This document shows, one piece after another, positions 2,655 through 22,759 of a stretch of DNA of 22,759 nt (its first letter is position 1; each line of letters begins with the position of its first letter). Under the pieces are notes generated by a model, which ran no database searches, had not been told where the DNA came from, and saw nothing but the letters and a program-made list of their open reading frames with translations. The position numbers and the translations under genes are program-made. The DNA comes from Clostridia bacterium (GTDB taxonomy: Bacteria > Aerophobota > Aerophobia > Aerophobales > AE-B3A): the NCBI GenBank assembly GCA_009618505.1, contig WJOQ01000059.1, positions 1-22,759 on the forward strand, given 5' to 3'.

Positions 2655-3043
2655 TGTATCTATTCAGCCTTATTTCGTAAATACTCAGTGAAACACCTCA
2701 TTGCGAGCTCCGAAGGGGCGTGGAAGATTGCCACGTCGCTATCGCTCCTCGCAATGGGCATAATACTCAAAAAGTGTTGCTATTTTTAAGATAACAGTAC
2801 CATTTTAAGTAATGAATTTTGTGCATTTGGGCTAGTCCATGAGGCTTAGTATTGAAAGACCCACAGTATTGACAATACTTTTTTTATCATGATAAGCATC
2901 CTTTTATCAAACCGTTTTGGTAATCTAATACAAAATAAGGCTTATCTTCAATGATATCATATGTTTACAATTTTTACCAGCAACACTTTTTGAGTATTAT
3001 GCCCGCAATGACAAATAAATGTACTATGGTTGAATAGATACAT
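2655..3043. repeat. Nested inverted-repeat (MITE-like) element
   Basis: There is no gene between 2598 and 3091. Three sets of inverted arms bracket the spacer. An outer arm reads TGTATCTATTCA at 2655-2666 and TGAATAGATACA at 3031-3042. A middle arm reads TCATTGCG at 2698-2705 and CGCAATGA at 3004-3011. An inner arm is perfect over 26 bases (2756-2781 against 2979-3004, containing AATACTCAAAAAGTGTTGC). A 6-bp hairpin with GAC loop lies near the centre (2865-2879). Long terminal arms with no coding capacity fit a non-autonomous transposable element. Its right arm ends about 50 bases before the start of the dehydrogenase gene at 3092, so it may carry that operon's promoter. Confidence 0.7.
2699..2756. 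repeat. REP-like palindrome inserted in the left arm of the MITE-like element
   Basis: CATTGCGAG (2699-2707) and CTCGCAATG (2748-2756) are perfect 9-bp inverted ends, with an inner hairpin CGTGG/CCACG (2719-2723/2731-2735). The right arm of the surrounding element lacks the corresponding 50 or so bases, so this segment looks like a later insertion. It shares its ends with the element at 1157-1188. Confidence 0.6.
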
Positions 3044-12139: not shown

Positions 12140-12162
12140 TGAGGATTGAGGATTAAGAAAAA

Positions 12163-12199
12163 GAGGATATCTACCTGGTCCTTTCAGGTAGATATCCTC
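12163..12199 (+). terminator. Intra-operon hairpin after the binding-protein gene
   Basis: A perfect 15-bp stem (GAGGATATCTACCTG at 12163-12177 with its complement at 12185-12199) and a 7-base loop. Only a short AATATTTT follows, so termination would be partial. Such hairpins between a binding-protein gene and its permeases typically protect the upstream mRNA or attenuate readthrough. The permease gene begins 37 bases later. Confidence 0.75.
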
Positions 12200-12236
12200 A
12201 ATATTTTGATACTTAACAGATAATAGGGAAAATGAT

Positions 12237-13238: not shown

Positions 13239-14348
13239 ATGAGAACAAAAAAAGAGGAAATTAGCGCTGAAGAAAAGCTTTATGTAGCCTCACAATGGCA
13301 GCTTATGTGGCGAAAGTTTGTAAAACATAAGTTGGCTATCTTTGGAGGCGGTATATTGGCTATTTTTTATCTTGTAGCTATATTTTGTGAGTTTTTTTCT
13401 GTCTATGATCCATATAAACGTTACACGAAGTATATTTATTGCCCCCCCTCAAGAATTCATTTCTTCGATGAGAAGGGGTTTCACTTTCGTCCCTTTGTCT
13501 ACAGCATAAAGAGAAAGATCAACTTGGAGACCTTTCGCAAGACATATACGGAGGATAAGGTTAAGAAATATCCCATTTATTTTTTTATTCACAGCGATAA
13601 ATACAAGTTGTGGAACTTATTTAAAATGGACGTTCACCTCTTTGGGGTAAGAGAGGGAGGAATGTTCTTATTTGGAACGGACATCTTGGGTAGAGATTTA
13701 TTCTCTCGTAATCTCTACGCTGCTCGCATTTCCTTATCCATAGGTTTGATAGGGGTAGCTTTAAGTTTTGTTTTAGGAATTATTTTGGGAGGAATCTCTG
13801 GATATTATGGAGGGGGAGCTGATATGATCATTCAAAGAATTATAGAGTTTTTAATCTCCATACCCACTATTCCTCTCTGGATGGCCTTAGCGGCAGCTCT
13901 ACCGGCAGATTGGTCGCCGATCAAGGCTTACTTTGGTATCACCATTATCCTTTCTGTTGTGGGTTGGTGTGGCTTAGCCCGGGTGGTAAGGGGGAAATTC
14001 CTAGAATTAAGAGAGGAGGATTTTGCCATGGCGGCTAAAATCGCCGGGGCAACTCAAAAAAGGGTAATAGCGAAACATCTTCTTCCCTCATTTTTAAGCT
14101 ATCTTATAGTGAGTTTGACCTTATCTATACCAGGGATGATCTTAGGCGAGACCTCCTTGAGCTTTTTAGGTTTAGGGCTTCGACCTCCAGTAATAAGCTG
14201 GGGGGTTCTTTTGAAGGAGTCACAAAAGGTACAAACTGTTGCCCTTCACCCCTGGCTTTTAATTCCGGGTTTTTTTGTCATCATCACCGTTTTAGCCTTT
14301 AGCTTCCTGGGAGATGGTCTTCGTGACGCAGCTGATCCATATAAGTGA
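13239..14348 (+). CDS. ABC transporter permease, OppC/DppC type
   Basis: A 369-residue partner permease. TM1 is near residues 35-55 (FGGGILAIFYLVAIFCEFFS). A long periplasmic insertion of about 90 residues follows, rich in Lys and aromatic residues; it makes this protein longer than common OppC and resembles members of the oligosaccharide-type subgroup. The core begins with FGTDILGRDLFSRNLYAARI, has the EAA loop EEDFAMAAKIAGATQKRVIA, and ends with [16 protein letters not shown]. No own ribosome-binding site is clear, so translation is probably coupled to the previous gene. No OppD/OppF ATPase follows; the operon ends at the terminator 14450-14488, so ATPases must come from elsewhere. Confidence 0.92.
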   Translation: MRTKKEEISAEEKLYVASQWQLMWRKFVKHKLAIFGGGILAIFYLVAIFCEFFSVYDPYKRYTKYIYCPPSRIHFFDEKGFHFRPFVYSIKRKINLETFRKTYTEDKVKKYPIYFFIHSDKYKLWNLFKMDVHLFGVREGGMFLFGTDILGRDLFSRNLYAARISLSIGLIGVALSFVLGIILGGISGYYGGGADMIIQRIIEFLISIPTIPLWMALAAALPADWSPIKAYFGITIILSVVGWCGLARVVRGKFLELREEDFAMAAKIAGATQKRVIAKHLLPSFLSYLIVSLTLSIPGMILGETSLSFLGLGLRPPVISWGVLLKESQKVQTVALHPWLLIPGFFVIITVLAFSFLGDGLRDAADPYK

Positions 14349-17282: not shown

Positions 17283-19149
17283 CTATCTGAAGGGATTGGT
17301 ATTAGGGAGGAGACCTTTTCCCTGGATTAAAGAAAGAATAAAAGCTAGCACCATGGGAGCTTCTAGTTTTTTCTTGTAGGATTTATCCCATGTCTTTAAA
17401 TACTTCATAAGGTTAAGGGTAATTCCTATAACAAAGGACATCACCCGCTTTAAAAGAGTAGTGATACAGGCCATGGTTGCCTCAATAGAAGCCATGGTTA
17501 GTCCATAGATGCGGGGAGAACTCAGAATATCTAAATCAGAGGATTTGCAAGTTCCATTGGAACGCTCAGAGGCCGAGCGAAGGTTTCTAATCTTTTTCCA
17601 GCGATCTGAACATCGGGGAATTTCACAGACAAGACGTGGATGAGCTTTAATGGACATATGAGTAGAGTAGCCACACTCATTTTCAAGATGCTTACAATCC
17701 TTTATAAGATCAGGTACAGCTAAGGGGCAGGTTAAACACTCTTTTCGACAAACAAAGGATACTCTTTTTTTCTCCTTATCATATCCATTGGGCTTACATA
17801 AGGCCCCACAAGGAGCAAAGGGAGTTCCTTTCTTATCATAGCCTCTTTTTCTTAAAATTTTGATATCAGTCTTTTCTTTTCGCTTATTGTAGTCAATAAC
17901 AGGAATGGAACAGGTGCTTCTGATGTGACTAAAATTCTTCTTGATATCAAGGCCACAGTCACCAATATCAAAATAGGGCAAAAATCCATGTTTTTCGATA
18001 AGTTTTTCTCTTTCGGAAATAGAATAGAAGCCTATCTAACTCATTTGCTGGGCTACTTACACATCCTACGGGAAGCTCAAGGCCTATTTCTAACTCAATG
18101 TTGGTAGTGATCATTGACTGATAACCAAACACCGCAACCTTTTTATTGGGATTATGATTTGCTCTTTTGTAGCCAATTTTTGCCTCAAGATCAGCCGGCA
18201 CTCTCGGACAACTAACATAGACTAAAGGCTCATCTCCCGTAAGGTCTATCCGGGAGATCGAAGAGGAGAGGAGCTTAAGGTAAAGTCCCTCTTCTGATAG
18301 TCTTTTCTCTAAACCGAGAACATGGGCGAGCTCACTTGGTTTTTCTTCTTTTTGCTCTTCCTCTTGAGGTACTAAAGAGAAAGAAAGAGTTCGGAAAGTA
18401 GGCCTTTTTTTCACAGAGGCAGGAAGATCATCTTTAGGGCAGATGGCAAAGGAGCATCTCTCTTTACCTAAAATGATCTTTGAAGGATGATTTAAAGAAT
18501 TAATTATTCTATAGCGAAGACTCTTTAGAAAATTGTCTTTTAGGGGAATACTTTTACATTCCTCACAGGCATAATTACACCCTTTGTAATTGGCATAGGT
18601 GGGAAAAAGAGTTCCATCATAGGAGAGAATTTTTCCTGTAATCAGGCCAACTCTTTTAACGATCTCTACTAAGATATGGAAGATTTCATCAAACTTTTCT
18701 GGTTTAATTTGCTTTTTGAAATGAGAAAAGTCAGCCTCACAGGGGATACGATTATCAGATATTCCGGCATAAGTTCTATAGCATCGTCCTTTGTCTTTAT
18801 CATGCAGACAAGAGACAAAGCTTTTTTGGCTCTTGAACTTATCTAAGTACCGACAAAGGTAAAGCACAAAGAAAGAGGCAGGATCAAAGCAGGGTCCTCC
18901 GCATCTTTTGTATGAGGAGGCTACTAAGGATCTCACAAAGGAAAAGTCGACGAGAGAGGTAGCCAACTTCGAGAAGGAAAAGTACCCTTGAGGACTGATA
19001 TCGACAAATCTTTTTTTGTATTGATAAAAGGATAAAAGCCGATATCTTTCCTTGGGGAAGGTTTCTTTGTGCTCAAGATTGATCTTAACATTGATCGAAT
19101 TTAGCTTTTTTTGAATCTCTTTTAGAGAAAAGACAGTGAGATCTTTCAA
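17283..19149 (-). pseudogene. DDE transposase, frameshifted (IS1182/IS5-like)
   Basis: The N-terminal part (19149 down to 17968) contains the DUF772-like start (SYKRCGGPCFDPASFFVLYL, CRYLDKFKSQKSF, RTYAGISDNRIPCEADFSHF) and the first catalytic Asp (ILSYDGTLFPTYANYKG), followed by a Cys cluster CNYACEECK. The reading then passes into another frame (17981 down to 17283, open upstream to about 18030) with YFDIGDCGLDIKKN, a C-x4-C-x2-C segment and the likely catalytic Glu in ASERSNGTCK. A one-base shift between about 18015 and 18030 joins them; no A6/A7 slippery run is there, so it looks like a mutation rather than programmed frameshifting. The start is best at TTG 19149, which has AAGGAG 6 bases upstream; TTG 19170 lies inside a hairpin. 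The family name is approximate. Confidence 0.78.
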
Positions 19150-19163
19150 TGATCTCTCCTTAG

Positions 19164-19200
19164 AGGGCAAGCTCTATCCTACAACAATAAGGCTTGCCCT
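19164..19200 (-). promoter_or_regulatory. Leader hairpin in front of the transposase
   Basis: AGGGCAAGC (19164-19172) and GCTTGCCCT (19192-19200) form a perfect 9-bp stem immediately upstream of the transposase ribosome-binding site on the minus strand. Such leader hairpins in insertion sequences often prevent translation from transcripts that enter from outside. The function is inferred. Confidence 0.5.
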
Positions 19201-19322: not shown

Positions 19323-20219
19323 TCAAGTACTGGAAGAGCTTTGCCCTTTACCACCCAAAGCGTTCCGGAATCTCTTTAGCAAGGGGTAAAGGTAAATATT
19401 CTTGATTGGCACCTTGAGGCTCCGGTAGCGATCATTACGACTACGTCCCTTACTCTCACCAACATAGATCCAGTTGGCAGCTTGATAACAGGTACCTCGA
19501 AAGCGCTCTTTCTCAACAAAGGTCTCTAGCATATAGATAGGATGACTATATCTATTTATCCAGTCGGAGCTGATACGCCGGGCCACTCTTCCTAAGAGAT
19601 GGCTGGCCAGATGAGGCACCTTAACCCAGGGCAAGATCAAAAACCGCATGTTGTTAGTGAGAAAATGAAGGTTTGCTTTTCTTGTTGCCTCATCCCAGCC
19701 AATAAAGTTATCCCGGGCAAGAGTCTTCCAGGCCGCGGAGCCAAAAAGAAGGCAGGCCAGGGGATTATCTTTCTCATCAAAGATTAAATACTTCAGGTTC
19801 TCTCCTACAGTTCCAGTAAAGCCAAGATAATGATAGGAAGAGAGCAGGCACTTAAAGAGTCCTAAAAGATCTTTCTCTTTAACTACCTTGATCCTGAGGG
19901 GAAGAAGACGACTAAGCTTACCCGCAATCGGGGTAGTCTTGTGAGGAACATAGGAACAAGGAAGCCTTTTTCGGACTTTACGGCAGGAGTAGAGGCGAGG
20001 AGGCAAGGTAAGATGGCCTTTCTTTTCCAGCTTCAAAAGAAAAGTCCGGCAGGCCATATCCTTAAGTTGACCGCTAAGAGCACGCCAGTTCCAGAGCATT
20101 GCTAGCTCTTTAGAAAGCCGGGTGCGACCCCAGGAAGGATTAGCCTTGATCATTTCTCGAATAGATTCAATATCTTCAGGAGTTATTTCTCGTCCCTGGA
20201 TGATAGTAGTTTTTTCCAT
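19323..20219 (-). CDS. DruA-like (DUF4338) protein
   Basis: A 298-residue protein of the DUF4338/DruA family. The N-terminal part (residues 12-50: TPEDIESIREMIKANPSWGR then TRLSKELAMLWNW) is the usual 'R..LS..lc..w.W....G..kdmacR..L..L...G.i.LP' module. The central part has LLSSYHYLGFTGTVGENLKY, and the end has FRGTCYQAANWIYVGESKGR and VPIKNIYLYPL, the family's most conserved block. DruA is known from Druantia defence systems, but single DUF4338 genes are also frequent beside transposases. Here a transposase lies 170 bases downstream on the same strand and no Druantia helicase is present, so a mobile-element role is more likely. There is no clear ribosome-binding site before the ATG at 20219; TATGAT lies 11 bases upstream, which would suit a near-leaderless mRNA. 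Confidence 0.85.
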   Translation of the reverse strand: MEKTTIIQGREITPEDIESIREMIKANPSWGRTRLSKELAMLWNWRALSGQLKDMACRTFLLKLEKKGHLTLPPRLYSCRKVRKRLPCSYVPHKTTPIAGKLSRLLPLRIKVVKEKDLLGLFKCLLSSYHYLGFTGTVGENLKYLIFDEKDNPLACLLFGSAAWKTLARDNFIGWDEATRKANLHFLTNNMRFLILPWVKVPHLASHLLGRVARRISSDWINRYSHPIYMLETFVEKERFRGTCYQAANWIYVGESKGRSRNDRYRSLKVPIKNIYLYPLLKRFRNALGGKGQSSSST

Positions 20220-20528
20220 GAGTTAATCATATCATAAAAGCAAATAGGAGTCCAGCCCTAACCCTGAGAAAAGAATCGAGGATTTTCAAAATTCGATTAA
20301 ATTGTGTATTTAAGTTGATACGTGAGTGCCTAAATAGTTACAAAATTACTTTGTCAGGTGGGTTGTTTAAAATTTTGGTGTGCTGAAGTAGCCCAAAAAT
20401 ACAGAGAGAGGAGTTCTTAAATCAGCTCTTAAATGCAAGAAATGCAAAAGAGTCTTTGACTTTGATGTAGGTAAGATAAGCTTTGAGTTGGGCGAAATAG
20501 TACAATAATAATATACGGGAGGTTTAAG
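20220..20528. other. Gene-free right border of the mobile unit
   Basis: It holds an imperfect hairpin (AATCGA at 20274-20279 with TCGATT at 20293-20298, inner ATTTT/AAAAT) upstream of the DruA-like gene, and the border repeat at 20410-20428. On the plus strand a frame from 20392 to a TAA at about 20505 reads GVLKSALKCKKCKRVFDFDV, a CxxC-containing scrap probably left from a lost gene. GGGAGG at the end belongs to the next gene. Confidence 0.5.
20410..20428. repeat. Right copy of the 19-bp inverted repeat
   Basis: GGAGTTCTTAAATCAGCTC is the exact reverse complement of 17086-17104. Five bases later comes TGCAAGAAATGC (CKKC on the plus strand), parallel to the left copy. The distance of about 3.3 kb encloses both mobile-unit genes. 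Confidence 0.75.
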
Positions 20529-21398
20529 ATGGCAAAGGAAGGTGTAATCTCTGTGTGCGGTTTCTTGATTCATATTTCTCATTATGATCCTACATGGTGC
20601 AAAGTCAAGTCAAGAGAAAAACCGTTTGATCTTGACTTGGGATTAGAGATTATAGACACCATGTCAGAGGTAGGACTAAATTTATTAGTCATAGACTGCG
20701 CTGATGGAGTAAGATATAAATCACATCCAGAGTTGGCGCGGAAATATACCGTGCCTATGACTCATCTTGAAGAGTTAGTGAATCGAGCACAAGAAAAAGA
20801 TATTGAGGTAGTGCCTAAATTGAATTTCTCTCAAAGTAGACATCATCAGCACAATGATTGGTTCAGACCCCATAATGACCTCTTCGATAATGATAACTAT
20901 TGGAGAATTGCCTTTGAGATAATCGATGAGATTATCCAGGTCTGTCGTCCCCGACGTTACTTTCACATTGGTATGGATGAGGATCATGATAGAGCACATT
21001 CACAATATATCGAAGCTATCCTGAAACTCCAGAGTGGGCTTAAGGAACGAGGACTACGCACCATAATATGGAATGACTCATCACATGGGGGAAAAATGTT
21101 GGTACATGCAGAGAAGTCTCTTGTTGCAGAAAAAAAGATTCCTAAGGATATTGTGCAGGTACTTTGGGACTATAGTAATGTGCAGCCAAAGATTATCCGT
21201 CGCCTTATTAAAGAAGGGTTTCAAGTATGGGGTGCCCCTGGTCCAAATGCTGAGAAGGTCTTAAAGTGGAGAGAGGCAATTCTGCACTACGGGGGAAAAG
21301 GATTGCTTCTGACCATGTGGATACCCTGTAGTCTTTCAAATCGTTCCAAGCTAATCCAATTCATCCGAACCAGCGGGTCTATTTGTAGCCGAAGCTAG
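20529..21398 (+). CDS. GH20-like TIM-barrel glycosidase-type protein, 3' end disturbed
   Basis: A 289-residue protein resembling the catalytic barrel of family 20 beta-N-acetylhexosaminidases. RYFHIGMDEDHDR (D150-E151) corresponds to the H-x-GxDE catalytic Asp-Glu pair; VVPKLNFSQSRHH, a later VQVLWDYSN and LLLTMWIPCSLSNR also fit barrel strands of this family. There is no signal peptide, so it acts inside the cell or is regulatory. Start ATG 20529 has GGGAGG 9 bases upstream. The end looks damaged: after FIRTSG (about 21376) the current frame gives SICSRS and stops, while the +1 frame gives a more natural LFVAEARMF, and another frame continues to 21514. Loss of the last part is therefore likely, and the protein may be inactive. 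Its relation to the upstream sugar pathway is unclear. Confidence 0.65.
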   Translation: MAKEGVISVCGFLIHISHYDPTWCKVKSREKPFDLDLGLEIIDTMSEVGLNLLVIDCADGVRYKSHPELARKYTVPMTHLEELVNRAQEKDIEVVPKLNFSQSRHHQHNDWFRPHNDLFDNDNYWRIAFEIIDEIIQVCRPRRYFHIGMDEDHDRAHSQYIEAILKLQSGLKERGLRTIIWNDSSHGGKMLVHAEKSLVAEKKIPKDIVQVLWDYSNVQPKIIRRLIKEGFQVWGAPGPNAEKVLKWREAILHYGGKGLLLTMWIPCSLSNRSKLIQFIRTSGSICSRS

Positions 21399-21507
21399 AA
21401 TGTTTTTGTCTCTGTGAGACAAATATTCACGCTGGCATTTATCCAGATGTCCCCTTAGGTAATATTGAAGCATTGTGTCAAGTAATGGAAGAATACAGCA
21501 TTTATTA

Positions 21508-21596
21508 TTTATAACCACGATTATCACCAATCCACCGTCCTGGGTTTTAATTTCTTAGGTGATGGCCTGCGGGATGCGGCTGATCCGTATAAATAG
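21508..21596 (+). pseudogene. 3' remnant of an OppC-type permease gene
   Basis: The frame ending at TAG 21594-21596 reads [20 protein letters not shown] from about 21534, nearly the same as the end of the intact permease gene at 14348 ([20 protein letters not shown]). A shifted frame before it (ITTIIT, from about 21508) suits the preceding transmembrane helix. So the terminal codons of a second Opp-type permease gene are left here, directly after the damaged glycosidase gene. A deletion probably removed the rest of a second transporter. Confidence 0.8.
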
Positions 21597-21703
21597 CAAT
21601 TAAGAAAGGCAAATAACCCTTAAGCAAAAAAATGTAGCACTTGACAAAAAGAACAACTGGTTATCGACATACTAAATGATTTTATATCATCGGAGGCATC
21701 TTG

Positions 21704-21895
21704 ATGCAACCAACAAAAAAACAACTAATAGAAGCAGCCGACAAACTGCTTAATTGCTTTGAGAATTTAGATAAATGGCCAAAATTATCTGTCGCAATCT
21801 CTAAGAAAACTTGGTATGTTGCGCCAGTAGATGATACTACGAGAGATGTCATTAGGCATCTGGGCAAACTAACCGGGGCTATAAAGAGTGGATAA
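21704..21895 (+). CDS. Small hypothetical protein, 63 residues
   Basis: ATG 21704 has GGAGG 7 bases upstream (21692-21696), a good reason to believe it is translated. The product begins MQPTKKQLIEAADKLLNCFE, has an amphipathic helical N-half and a KKTWYVAPVDDTTRDVIRHL C-half. No membrane segment or Cys motif. I do not recognise the family. A TTGACA lies at 21641 without a matching -10 box. Confidence 0.5.
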   Translation: MQPTKKQLIEAADKLLNCFENLDKWPKLSVAISKKTWYVAPVDDTTRDVIRHLGKLTGAIKSG

Positions 21896-21951
21896 ATACA
21901 ATCTAGGTGGGAATGAAATAGTAATAGAGAAAATACGGGAGAGGAGTCTTT

Positions 21952-22071
21952 ATGAAGAAGCCTATACATACTAAATCTTGCAAATCAGAGTTGCTGGTTA
22001 TCGACCCTCCTCTAAGCCAAAGGTCATCATTTTATCACCCTTCCCTTTTTTCGAACTATCTAACCGCATAA
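21952..22071 (+). CDS. Possible 39-residue ORF
   Basis: ATG 21952 follows AGGAG at 21942-21946 with ideal spacing. The product (MKKPIHTKSCKSELLVIDPP and 19 more residues) ends at TAA 22069-22071. It may be the truncated start of a gene or a small peptide. The nucleotides of this ORF share two short blocks with 21657-21677, upstream of the previous gene. Confidence 0.3.
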   Translation: MKKPIHTKSCKSELLVIDPPLSQRSSFYHPSLFSNYLTA

Positions 22072-22252
22072 TCGAACTAAGCCAAAATATTCACTTAAAA
22101 GCTGATTTAAGTTGATTAAGTCCTTTACTTTAGATATCTCTTGAATTGAATTTAAGAAGGAGACTCAGCATAGGTGGTATGGCAGGGCTAGTGAGGTTAA
22201 GAGGATTATTCCTATACCTAGACCTGAGTAAAAACGGAGTATCCTATAATGA
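22072..22252. other. Gene-free spacer before the palindrome array
   Basis: AT-rich, no clear gene. A GGAG near 22158 precedes a 28-codon ORF (22179-22265) that runs into the first palindrome; I see no support for it as a gene. Confidence 0.4.
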
Positions 22253-22309
22253 GTTCACTGGGTGAACAAAGACTTCACTGAGTGAACCCTGAGACTTCAC
22301 TGAGTGAAC
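22253..22309. repeat. Three tandem 15-bp palindromes (operator-like array)
   Basis: TTCACTGGGTGAA, TTCACTGAGTGAA and TTCACTGAGTGAA are centred near 22260, 22280 and 22302, so spaced 20 and 22 bases apart, about two helical turns. The whole array is itself enclosed by imperfect inverted flanks (CCTATAATG before, CATTATAAG after). This is the layout of cooperative operator sites, or of a short tandem hairpin repeat. The GTG/CAC core also resembles sites of several regulator families; none can be assigned. Confidence 0.7.
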
Positions 22310-22337
22310 ACATTATAAGAGTATGGAATGATAATAA

Positions 22338-22759
22338 AGGCCCTGGTCAAGGGCCTGAGATTTAAGGGTCTAAGGGTTAGGTTATGGAGTTAGAGAGGAT
22401 TGGCTCGATTTTCGGAGGGGATTCGGCAAAATCGGCCTGAACGCAAAAATCACGACAACGCAGAACTGCCTTGATATAATTCCCTTAATATAAGGACTTT
22501 GATTTTGCCTTAGGGTTATAGGCTGCCTGGCCTTGAGATAATGCCTGTATCAAGCTGTGGTGAGGCGTTTTTTGAGTCTGTCCATTAAAATAATGGTTGA
22601 ATAATGGATTGAGAGGCTGTAGATAGTACGGAGGATTGACCGTTAAAAACGGTGATAAACGGTAGTCCTGCCAGGTAAGTAGTTACAGAAATGACCGTTT
22701 AAGAAGCGGTGGGAAAGCGGAGGAATGCAATAATTGCAATGGTTATTAGACAAAAAAGC
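22338..22759. ncRNA. Candidate structured non-coding region with serial hairpins
   Basis: No ORF of useful size exists on either strand. At least eight short hairpins of unrelated sequence follow each other: AGGCCCT/AGGGCCT (22338), CGATTTT/AAAATCG (22406), CCTTgATAT/ATATAAGG (22469), CTTGAgATA/TATCAAG (22532), CCATTA/TAATGG (22582), ACCGTT/AACGGT (22639), ACCGTTT/AAGCGGT (22694, one G-U) and TGCAAT/ATTGCA (22726). Starts are mostly 50-67 bases apart. In several modules a further copy of the 3' arm follows within 4-13 bases (TAATGG at 22602, AACGGT at 22658, AAGCGG at 22715, AAAATC at 22446). It could be a large structured RNA, a replication or recombination site, or a repeat relic. It continues past the window end. 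The strand is unknown. Confidence 0.4.

What the first reader, a model, noticed from the sequence alone, without database searches (positions are those of the whole stretch)
22338..22759. Serial hairpins of different sequence, most followed by a second copy of their own 3' arm
Seen directly: a run of short stems at a spacing of roughly 55-65 bases, with no ORF. In five of eight modules the 3' arm is present twice, so that one 5' arm could pair with either copy: TAATGG (22591 and 22602), AACGGT (22648 and 22658), AAGCGG (22704 and 22715), AAAATC (22428 and 22446), AAGGGYC (near 22349 and 22364). The arms differ in sequence from module to module while the architecture is kept, which is what selection on structure, not on sequence, would leave. 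I know no named RNA or repeat family with this 'arm, arm-prime, arm-prime' plan. Possible roles: a chain of two-state RNA switches, a large ornate ncRNA, or single-strand recombination or replication sites.
Basis: partly seen in the sequence, partly recalled or inferred. Interest (0 to 1): 0.8.

Follow-up and report, generated by a model that had tools for sequence, protein, structure and literature searches.

The report
Tandem hairpins with duplicated arms
A non-coding stretch of an uncultured microbe's DNA holds three neighbouring hairpins whose second arm is present twice, which looks like a structured RNA that can fold two ways, but only one example is known and its job is unproven.

Summary
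Three modules share a true plan: M5 (22582-22607), M6 (22639-22663) and M7 (22695-22720). Each is a 6-base arm, a 3-base A-rich loop, the complementary arm, 4-5 bases, and the complementary arm again, about 56 bases apart. In 5000 dinucleotide shuffles of the region none held more than one such module. In 91 control loci (2.57 Mb, both strands counted) no place held three within 180 bases. The other two quoted modules have a different geometry, and looser definitions also occur in GC-rich DNA. M6 and M7 are diverged copies of a ~56-base repeat, so the three are not independent, and covariation among them is not significant (84 of 500 shuffles). I found no ORF of 80 codons, no Rfam match and no relative in the collections searched; the DNA to the right was out of reach. 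Best reading: a structured + strand RNA, perhaps a leader or small RNA, of tandem hairpins with competing closures. Rivals: slippage in decayed DNA, a DNA operator array, or a TIGR-type stem-loop guide array. Real and unexplained, but resting on one locus.

The parts
22582..22607 (+). Module M5: arm CCATTA, loop AAA, arm TAATGG, TTGAA, arm TAATGG
   Evidence: closures -10.4 (distal) and -8.8 (proximal), proximal favoured; 22568-22616 z only -1.19
22639..22663 (+). Module M6: arm ACCGTT, loop AAA, arm AACGGT, GATA, arm AACGGT; distal pairing continues into outer stem AGGATT/AGTCCT (22632-22637 with 22664-22669)
   Evidence: -15.4 distal, -13.5 proximal; 22616-22689 z -2.87
22695..22720 (+). Module M7: arm CCGTTT, loop AAG, arm AAGCGG, TGGGA, arm AAGCGG (one T-G wobble with each copy)
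   Evidence: -8.7 proximal, -4.4 distal; 22690-22699 can also pair with 22738-22747
22483..22515 (+). Looser relative M3: CCTTA, loop ATA, TAAGG, and a TTAGGG that begins after 14 more bases
   Evidence: sequence; aligned with M5 at low score (20, below the shuffle mean of 21.9 for best scores); helix probability 0.91
22540..22573 (+). Possible intrinsic terminator: 12-pair hairpin followed by a run of T
   Evidence: -10.6 kcal/mol, z -2.32, 6 of 200 shuffles as good; not reported by the simple scan
22452..22480 (+). Promoter-like site with extended -10 (TGATATAAT)
   Evidence: 10 of 12 matches; 12 such sites found in 20200-22759, 7.5 expected
22338..22356 (.). Strong hairpin AGGCCCTGGTCAAGGGCCT, terminator-like on the - strand
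   Evidence: 22336-22358 z -3.40
22245..22317 (.). Three tandem TTCACTNNGTGAAC palindromes inside a TATAATG/CATTATA closing stem, next to the array

Best explanation
A structured, non-coding + strand RNA, most likely a leader or small RNA whose gene or target lies to the right of the window. It carries at least three paralogous hairpin modules that came from a ~56-base repeat and diverged with their pairing kept. In M5 and M6 the 5' arm can close on the near copy (tight 3-base loop) or the far copy (13-14-base loop stacked on an outer stem), with similar energy, so the module may switch or breathe. Shown: the duplicated arms, their regularity, their rarity, and predicted folding of the second half below shuffled controls. 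Inferred: transcription, the + strand, selection on pairing, switching, and any role.
For: Tight modules: three observed, at most one in 5000 shuffles, and no triple in 91 control loci, 2,569,034 bases over both strands. Arms change concordantly at two pair positions, plus wobbles that pair only on the + strand; 17 of 17 scored proximal pairs are standard, against 31 to 78% when slid. Folding of 22540-22759: z -2.82 (+) and -2.84 (-). 22616-22689 and 22689-22748: z -2.87 and -2.53. No coding signal found in what was scanned.
Against: One locus; no relative found. No Rfam match. Covariation over three copies is not significant (84 of 500; 130 of 500 for the distal pairing). 22321-22540 folds no better than shuffles on + (z -0.58); M5 with flank has z -1.19, 22376-22441 -0.81, 22443-22537 -1.76 and 22488-22575 -0.40. 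Both strands fold about equally well against shuffles, as palindrome-rich DNA would. M7, and M5 in longer context, do not fit a balanced two-state hairpin. The left flank holds decayed DNA.
Confidence: 0.4

Rival explanations
1. Neutral slippage: short tandem and inverted duplications in a decayed intergenic region. An 11-base direct duplication next to a palindrome gives arm, arm', arm' without function, and a ~56-base duplication copied it.
For: 22589-22612 is scored as an 11-base tandem repeat. M6 and M7 align as a diverged repeat; 1 of 60 shuffles reaches the score. A 22-base tandem palindrome lies next door. A second copy of an ABC permease gene's tail lies at 21534-21593. Real DNA holds more loose triples than shuffles even outside the region.
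Against: Three modules keep the same loop and gap while the letters of all three arms change together; slippage alone would need the same event several times or recent correction.
Confidence: 0.27
2. A DNA operator or iteron-like array: a protein binds AAYGG half-sites in each module, two inverted and a third one helical turn (10-11 bp) further.
For: Direct copies lie 11, 10 and 11 bp apart, inverted ones 9 bp start to start. Viral matches to the same arms include what look like direct AACGGT arrays (L033, L036, L045, by eye).
Against: Within a module all three half-sites share the variable base (A in M5; G in M6 and M7, read on the 5' arm's strand), which pairing or duplication explains better than a degenerate binding site. 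AACGGT and TAATGG are scattered singly elsewhere in the window as far as the listed positions show (last 15 per word).
Confidence: 0.2
3. A TIGR-type stem-loop guide array whose tas gene lies beyond the right edge of the window.
For: The published stem-loop class has tandem units with variable but consistently palindromic stems and variable intervening sequences (PMC12045711, section 9 read), similar in outline to these serial hairpins.
Against: No Nop-domain or IS110-type protein among the 18 of 29 listed ORFs scanned against Pfam. M5-M7 leave no room for two unpaired 8-12-base spacers, their loops are alike and A-rich, and I saw no constant box C/D pair by eye.
Confidence: 0.06

Closest known systems
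Bistable (mutually exclusive) hairpins of transcription attenuators and riboswitches (general knowledge, recalled)
   Same: One strand can pair with either of two partners; a possible promoter and a possible terminator lie within the region.
   Different: Here the plan recurs in three tandem modules with different arms, and no ligand fold, Rfam family or controlled gene is known.
TIGR stem-loop arrays (PMC12045711; section 9 and found passages read)
   Same: Tandem stem-loops with variable stems.
   Different: No Tas/Nop protein among the window ORFs scanned, no evident dual spacers or box motifs, and a duplicated 3' arm, which the passages read do not describe.
Plasmid or phage iteron and operator arrays (general knowledge, recalled)
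   Same: Inverted and direct half-sites at about one helical turn.
   Different: The half-site letters change together within a module, and no replication or phage repressor gene is among the window ORFs scanned.

Membership tests
Any Rfam 15 family | Score above the family's gathering threshold | tested here: not met
   0 matches in the window; 0 at E <= 1 in 22150-22759
TIGR stem-loop array | Adjacent tas gene with a Nop domain | tested here: inconclusive
   None among 18 of 29 ORFs scanned with Pfam; DNA right of 22759 not available
TIGR stem-loop array | Tandem stem-loops with variable palindromic stems | tested here: met
   in outline and clearly for M5-M7 only
[quoted passage not shown]
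   M5-M7 read by eye: loop AAA or AAG and a gap of 4-5 bases between copies, no variable spacer pair
Bistable attenuator or switch hairpin | Two exclusive pairings of similar energy | tested here: inconclusive
   Folded alone, M5 1.6 and M6 1.9 kcal/mol apart, M7 4.3; M5's preferred closure changes with the flank folded
Bistable attenuator or switch hairpin | Controls a downstream gene in cis | not testable with these tools
   The window ends 39 bases after M7
Protein operator or iteron array | Conserved half-site independent of pairing | tested here: inconclusive
   CCRTT core and its complement, kept apart from one wobble in M7, but the variable base is shared within modules; three modules only

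The most novel reading that the evidence does not exclude
A new kind of RNA element: a chain of tandem hairpins, each with one 5' arm and two competing copies of the 3' arm, kept by selection on the two-state pairing while the arm sequences drift.
Probability: 0.1. Interest if true: 0.7.

Novelty: new member of a known kind. Interest (0 to 1): 0.33.

Why it matters
If relatives show the same arm, arm', arm' plan with different letters, it would be an unnamed RNA architecture with built-in bistability in an uncultured lineage. If not, it is a good example of how slippage beside a palindrome mimics a designed switch.

Tried and rejected
Frameshifted coding gene: no Pfam match at E <= 1 for ten stop-free pieces, eight overlapping the region and two left of it; three further pieces of 25 or more codons that overlap the region were not scanned. 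Known RNA family: none. tRNA: none.

Copies elsewhere: an exact 31-mer in genome contigs gave 0. Viral contigs gave 0, 0 and 0 matches and 1 and 15 for single-module patterns; some of the 16 are the same sequence twice or thrice (by eye). In 15 of these 16 loci only the matched module lies within -150 to +200 bases; GC-rich L034 has one more 5-base-arm module. Plasmids: no match. Phages: two 30-base matches at E 0.6. Blastn of 22230-22759: 5 of 101 genomes (phylum of G005, E <= 0.1), 29 of 398 (phylum of G002, E <= 0.05) and 33 of 296 (phylum of G001, E <= 0.05). All matches are short (at most 60 columns); by the E-values alone about 10, 20 and 15 would be expected. In some searches at most two candidates per genome were scored, so sensitivity was limited. 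Four genomes match 22569-22594, over the first arm of M5; in the three of them held as loci (L113-L115) the copied arms do not follow. None of L108-L115 holds a tight triple; one single tight module occurs in L111 on the other strand. The ACCGTT pattern: 0 of 299 genomes.

The window's lineage could not be reached: the transporter protein found five relatives of 34-41% identity, and among the 120 listed relatives of the aldehyde dehydrogenase the best with an organism name is 76% to a 'Candidatus Calescamantes bacterium'. A covariance model from three modules was considered and not built, because three short copies carry too little information.

Literature: three searches for tandem, repeated or bistable hairpin RNAs returned no paper. 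One TIGR paper was read in section 9 and in found passages only; the other listings were seen as listings. These searches do not show that the plan is absent from print.

Full report
Observation. The quoted coordinates are right. The strong part is three modules, M5, M6 and M7, with a shared plan: six-base arm, three-base A-rich loop, complementary arm, four or five bases, complementary arm again. The scored 5' arms start at 22582, 22639 and 22695. Under this tight definition 5000 dinucleotide shuffles of 22338-22759 gave 0 modules 4984 times and 1 module 16 times. The control was 91 loci (L001-L031 and L048-L107; the pattern-fetched L032-L047 are left out of the rate), 1,284,517 bases or 2,569,034 over both strands, with a few shared stretches not removed. 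It had 74 single modules and no triple within 180 bases; pairs were seen in L083 and in pattern-fetched L034.

Limits of the observation. With five-base arms four control places reach three modules, all in loci of 62-77% GC. The whole window has 11 loose triples against 0.93 in shuffles, so real DNA is richer than shuffles. The other two quoted modules differ: GATTTT/AAAATC has loop 15 and gap 12, and AAGGGYC needs a mismatch or wobble. The three good modules are not independent: 22619-22662 aligns with 22675-22720, and 1 of 60 shuffles aligns as well.

Structure. The whole stretch 22230-22759 folds below shuffles (z -3.64 on +, -4.56 on -, 0 of 100 shuffles as good on either), but that stretch includes the TTCACTGAGTGAAC palindromes at 22245-22317. 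Without them 22321-22759 gives -2.33 and -3.24, its first half -0.58 and -1.79, its second half -2.82 and -2.84 (60 shuffles each). Folded alone, M5 and M6 close slightly better on the distal copy (by 1.6 and 1.9 kcal/mol), M7 on the proximal one (by 4.3). In longer context M5 prefers the proximal copy, M6 is part of a 72-base rod (22617-22688), and M7 pairs with a further partner at 22738-22747. Piece by piece the z-scores are -2.87 (M6 rod), -2.53 (M7), -1.19 (M5), -1.76 (22443-22537), -0.81 (22376-22441), -0.40 (22488-22575), -2.32 (22538-22575) and -3.40 (22336-22358).

Covariation among the three copies. For the proximal stem 17 of 17 scored cells pair, two pairs change on both sides and one shows a wobble; sliding the partner gives 31-78% paired and no double changes, but 84 of 500 shuffles reach the observed counts. 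For the distal stem the alignment is off by one base for M6, 78% of cells pair, one slid version also has a double change, and 130 of 500 shuffles reach the observed count. The wobbles in the M6 outer stem and in M7 are T-G on the + strand and would be A-C on the - strand: a weak hint that the + strand is the RNA.

Signals. A promoter-like site with an extended -10 lies at 22452-22480, and a 12-pair hairpin followed by T's at 22540-22573. Both are consensus-level signals only, and the 88 bases 22488-22575, roughly from a start at that promoter through the hairpin, fold no better than shuffles as a whole (z -0.40).

Surroundings. The left flank holds broken or mobile material: an IS1182-like transposase in two frames (17283-19170; NCBIfam scores 38 and 23 bits, below the cut-off of 270), a DruA-domain protein (19323-20219), and at 21534-21593 a second copy of the last residues of the permease gene 13239-14348 (18 of 20 residues identical). 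Proteins of the window are listed on a contig of 39,202 bases, but no genome is held for the window, so what lies to the right is unknown.

Relatives. None was found. The reach was limited: two genome scans, five viral scans, plasmids and phages (17, 18), one pattern search of 299 genomes (41) and blastn in 101, 398 and 296 genomes of phyla reached only through distant hits (31, 54, 55), with at most two candidates per genome scored in the last two. The longest match, 60 columns at 75% identity to 22406-22465 (L112), does not cover the modules. The better matches fetched as loci hold no array of tight modules.

Judgement. The core is real and unusual for its sequence class. Its meaning rests on three related copies at one place. 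A structured + strand RNA with paralogous, partly bistable hairpins is the best single reading (0.4), with neutral slippage (0.27) and a DNA operator array (0.2) close behind.

Noticed in passing
22245-22317: Three tandem TTCACTNNGTGAAC palindromes inside a TATAATG/CATTATA stem; 6 matches over both strands (up to 2 mismatches) against 0.10 expected in the window; no exact such tandem in viral contigs.
   Followed up: partly
21534-21593: Tail of an ABC permease gene repeated far from the longer gene at 13239-14348 (18 of 20 residues): a sign of rearrangement or gene decay.
   Followed up: partly
2756-2781 and 2979-3004: Perfect 26-base inverted repeat with 197 bases between the arms, possibly a small mobile element.
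   Followed up: no
12146-12216: Long hairpin, 32-base arms 78% complementary, between the substrate-binding protein gene and the permease gene.
   Followed up: no
19323-20219: DruA-domain (DUF4338) protein on the - strand next to a split IS1182-like transposase; only a weak PADLOC match (E 6.3e-6), so not clearly a Druantia system.
   Followed up: partly
21640-21668 and 21977-22005: Diverged 29-base direct repeat (72% identical) ending in CTGGTTATCGAC on either side of a 63-codon ORF with a plausible ribosome site by eye (21704-21892).
   Followed up: no
L034:8995-9020 (- strand): A GC-rich viral contig has ACCGTTAAAAACGGTGCGAAAACGGT just before what reads as a gene start, close in letters to M6; probably chance.
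   Followed up: no
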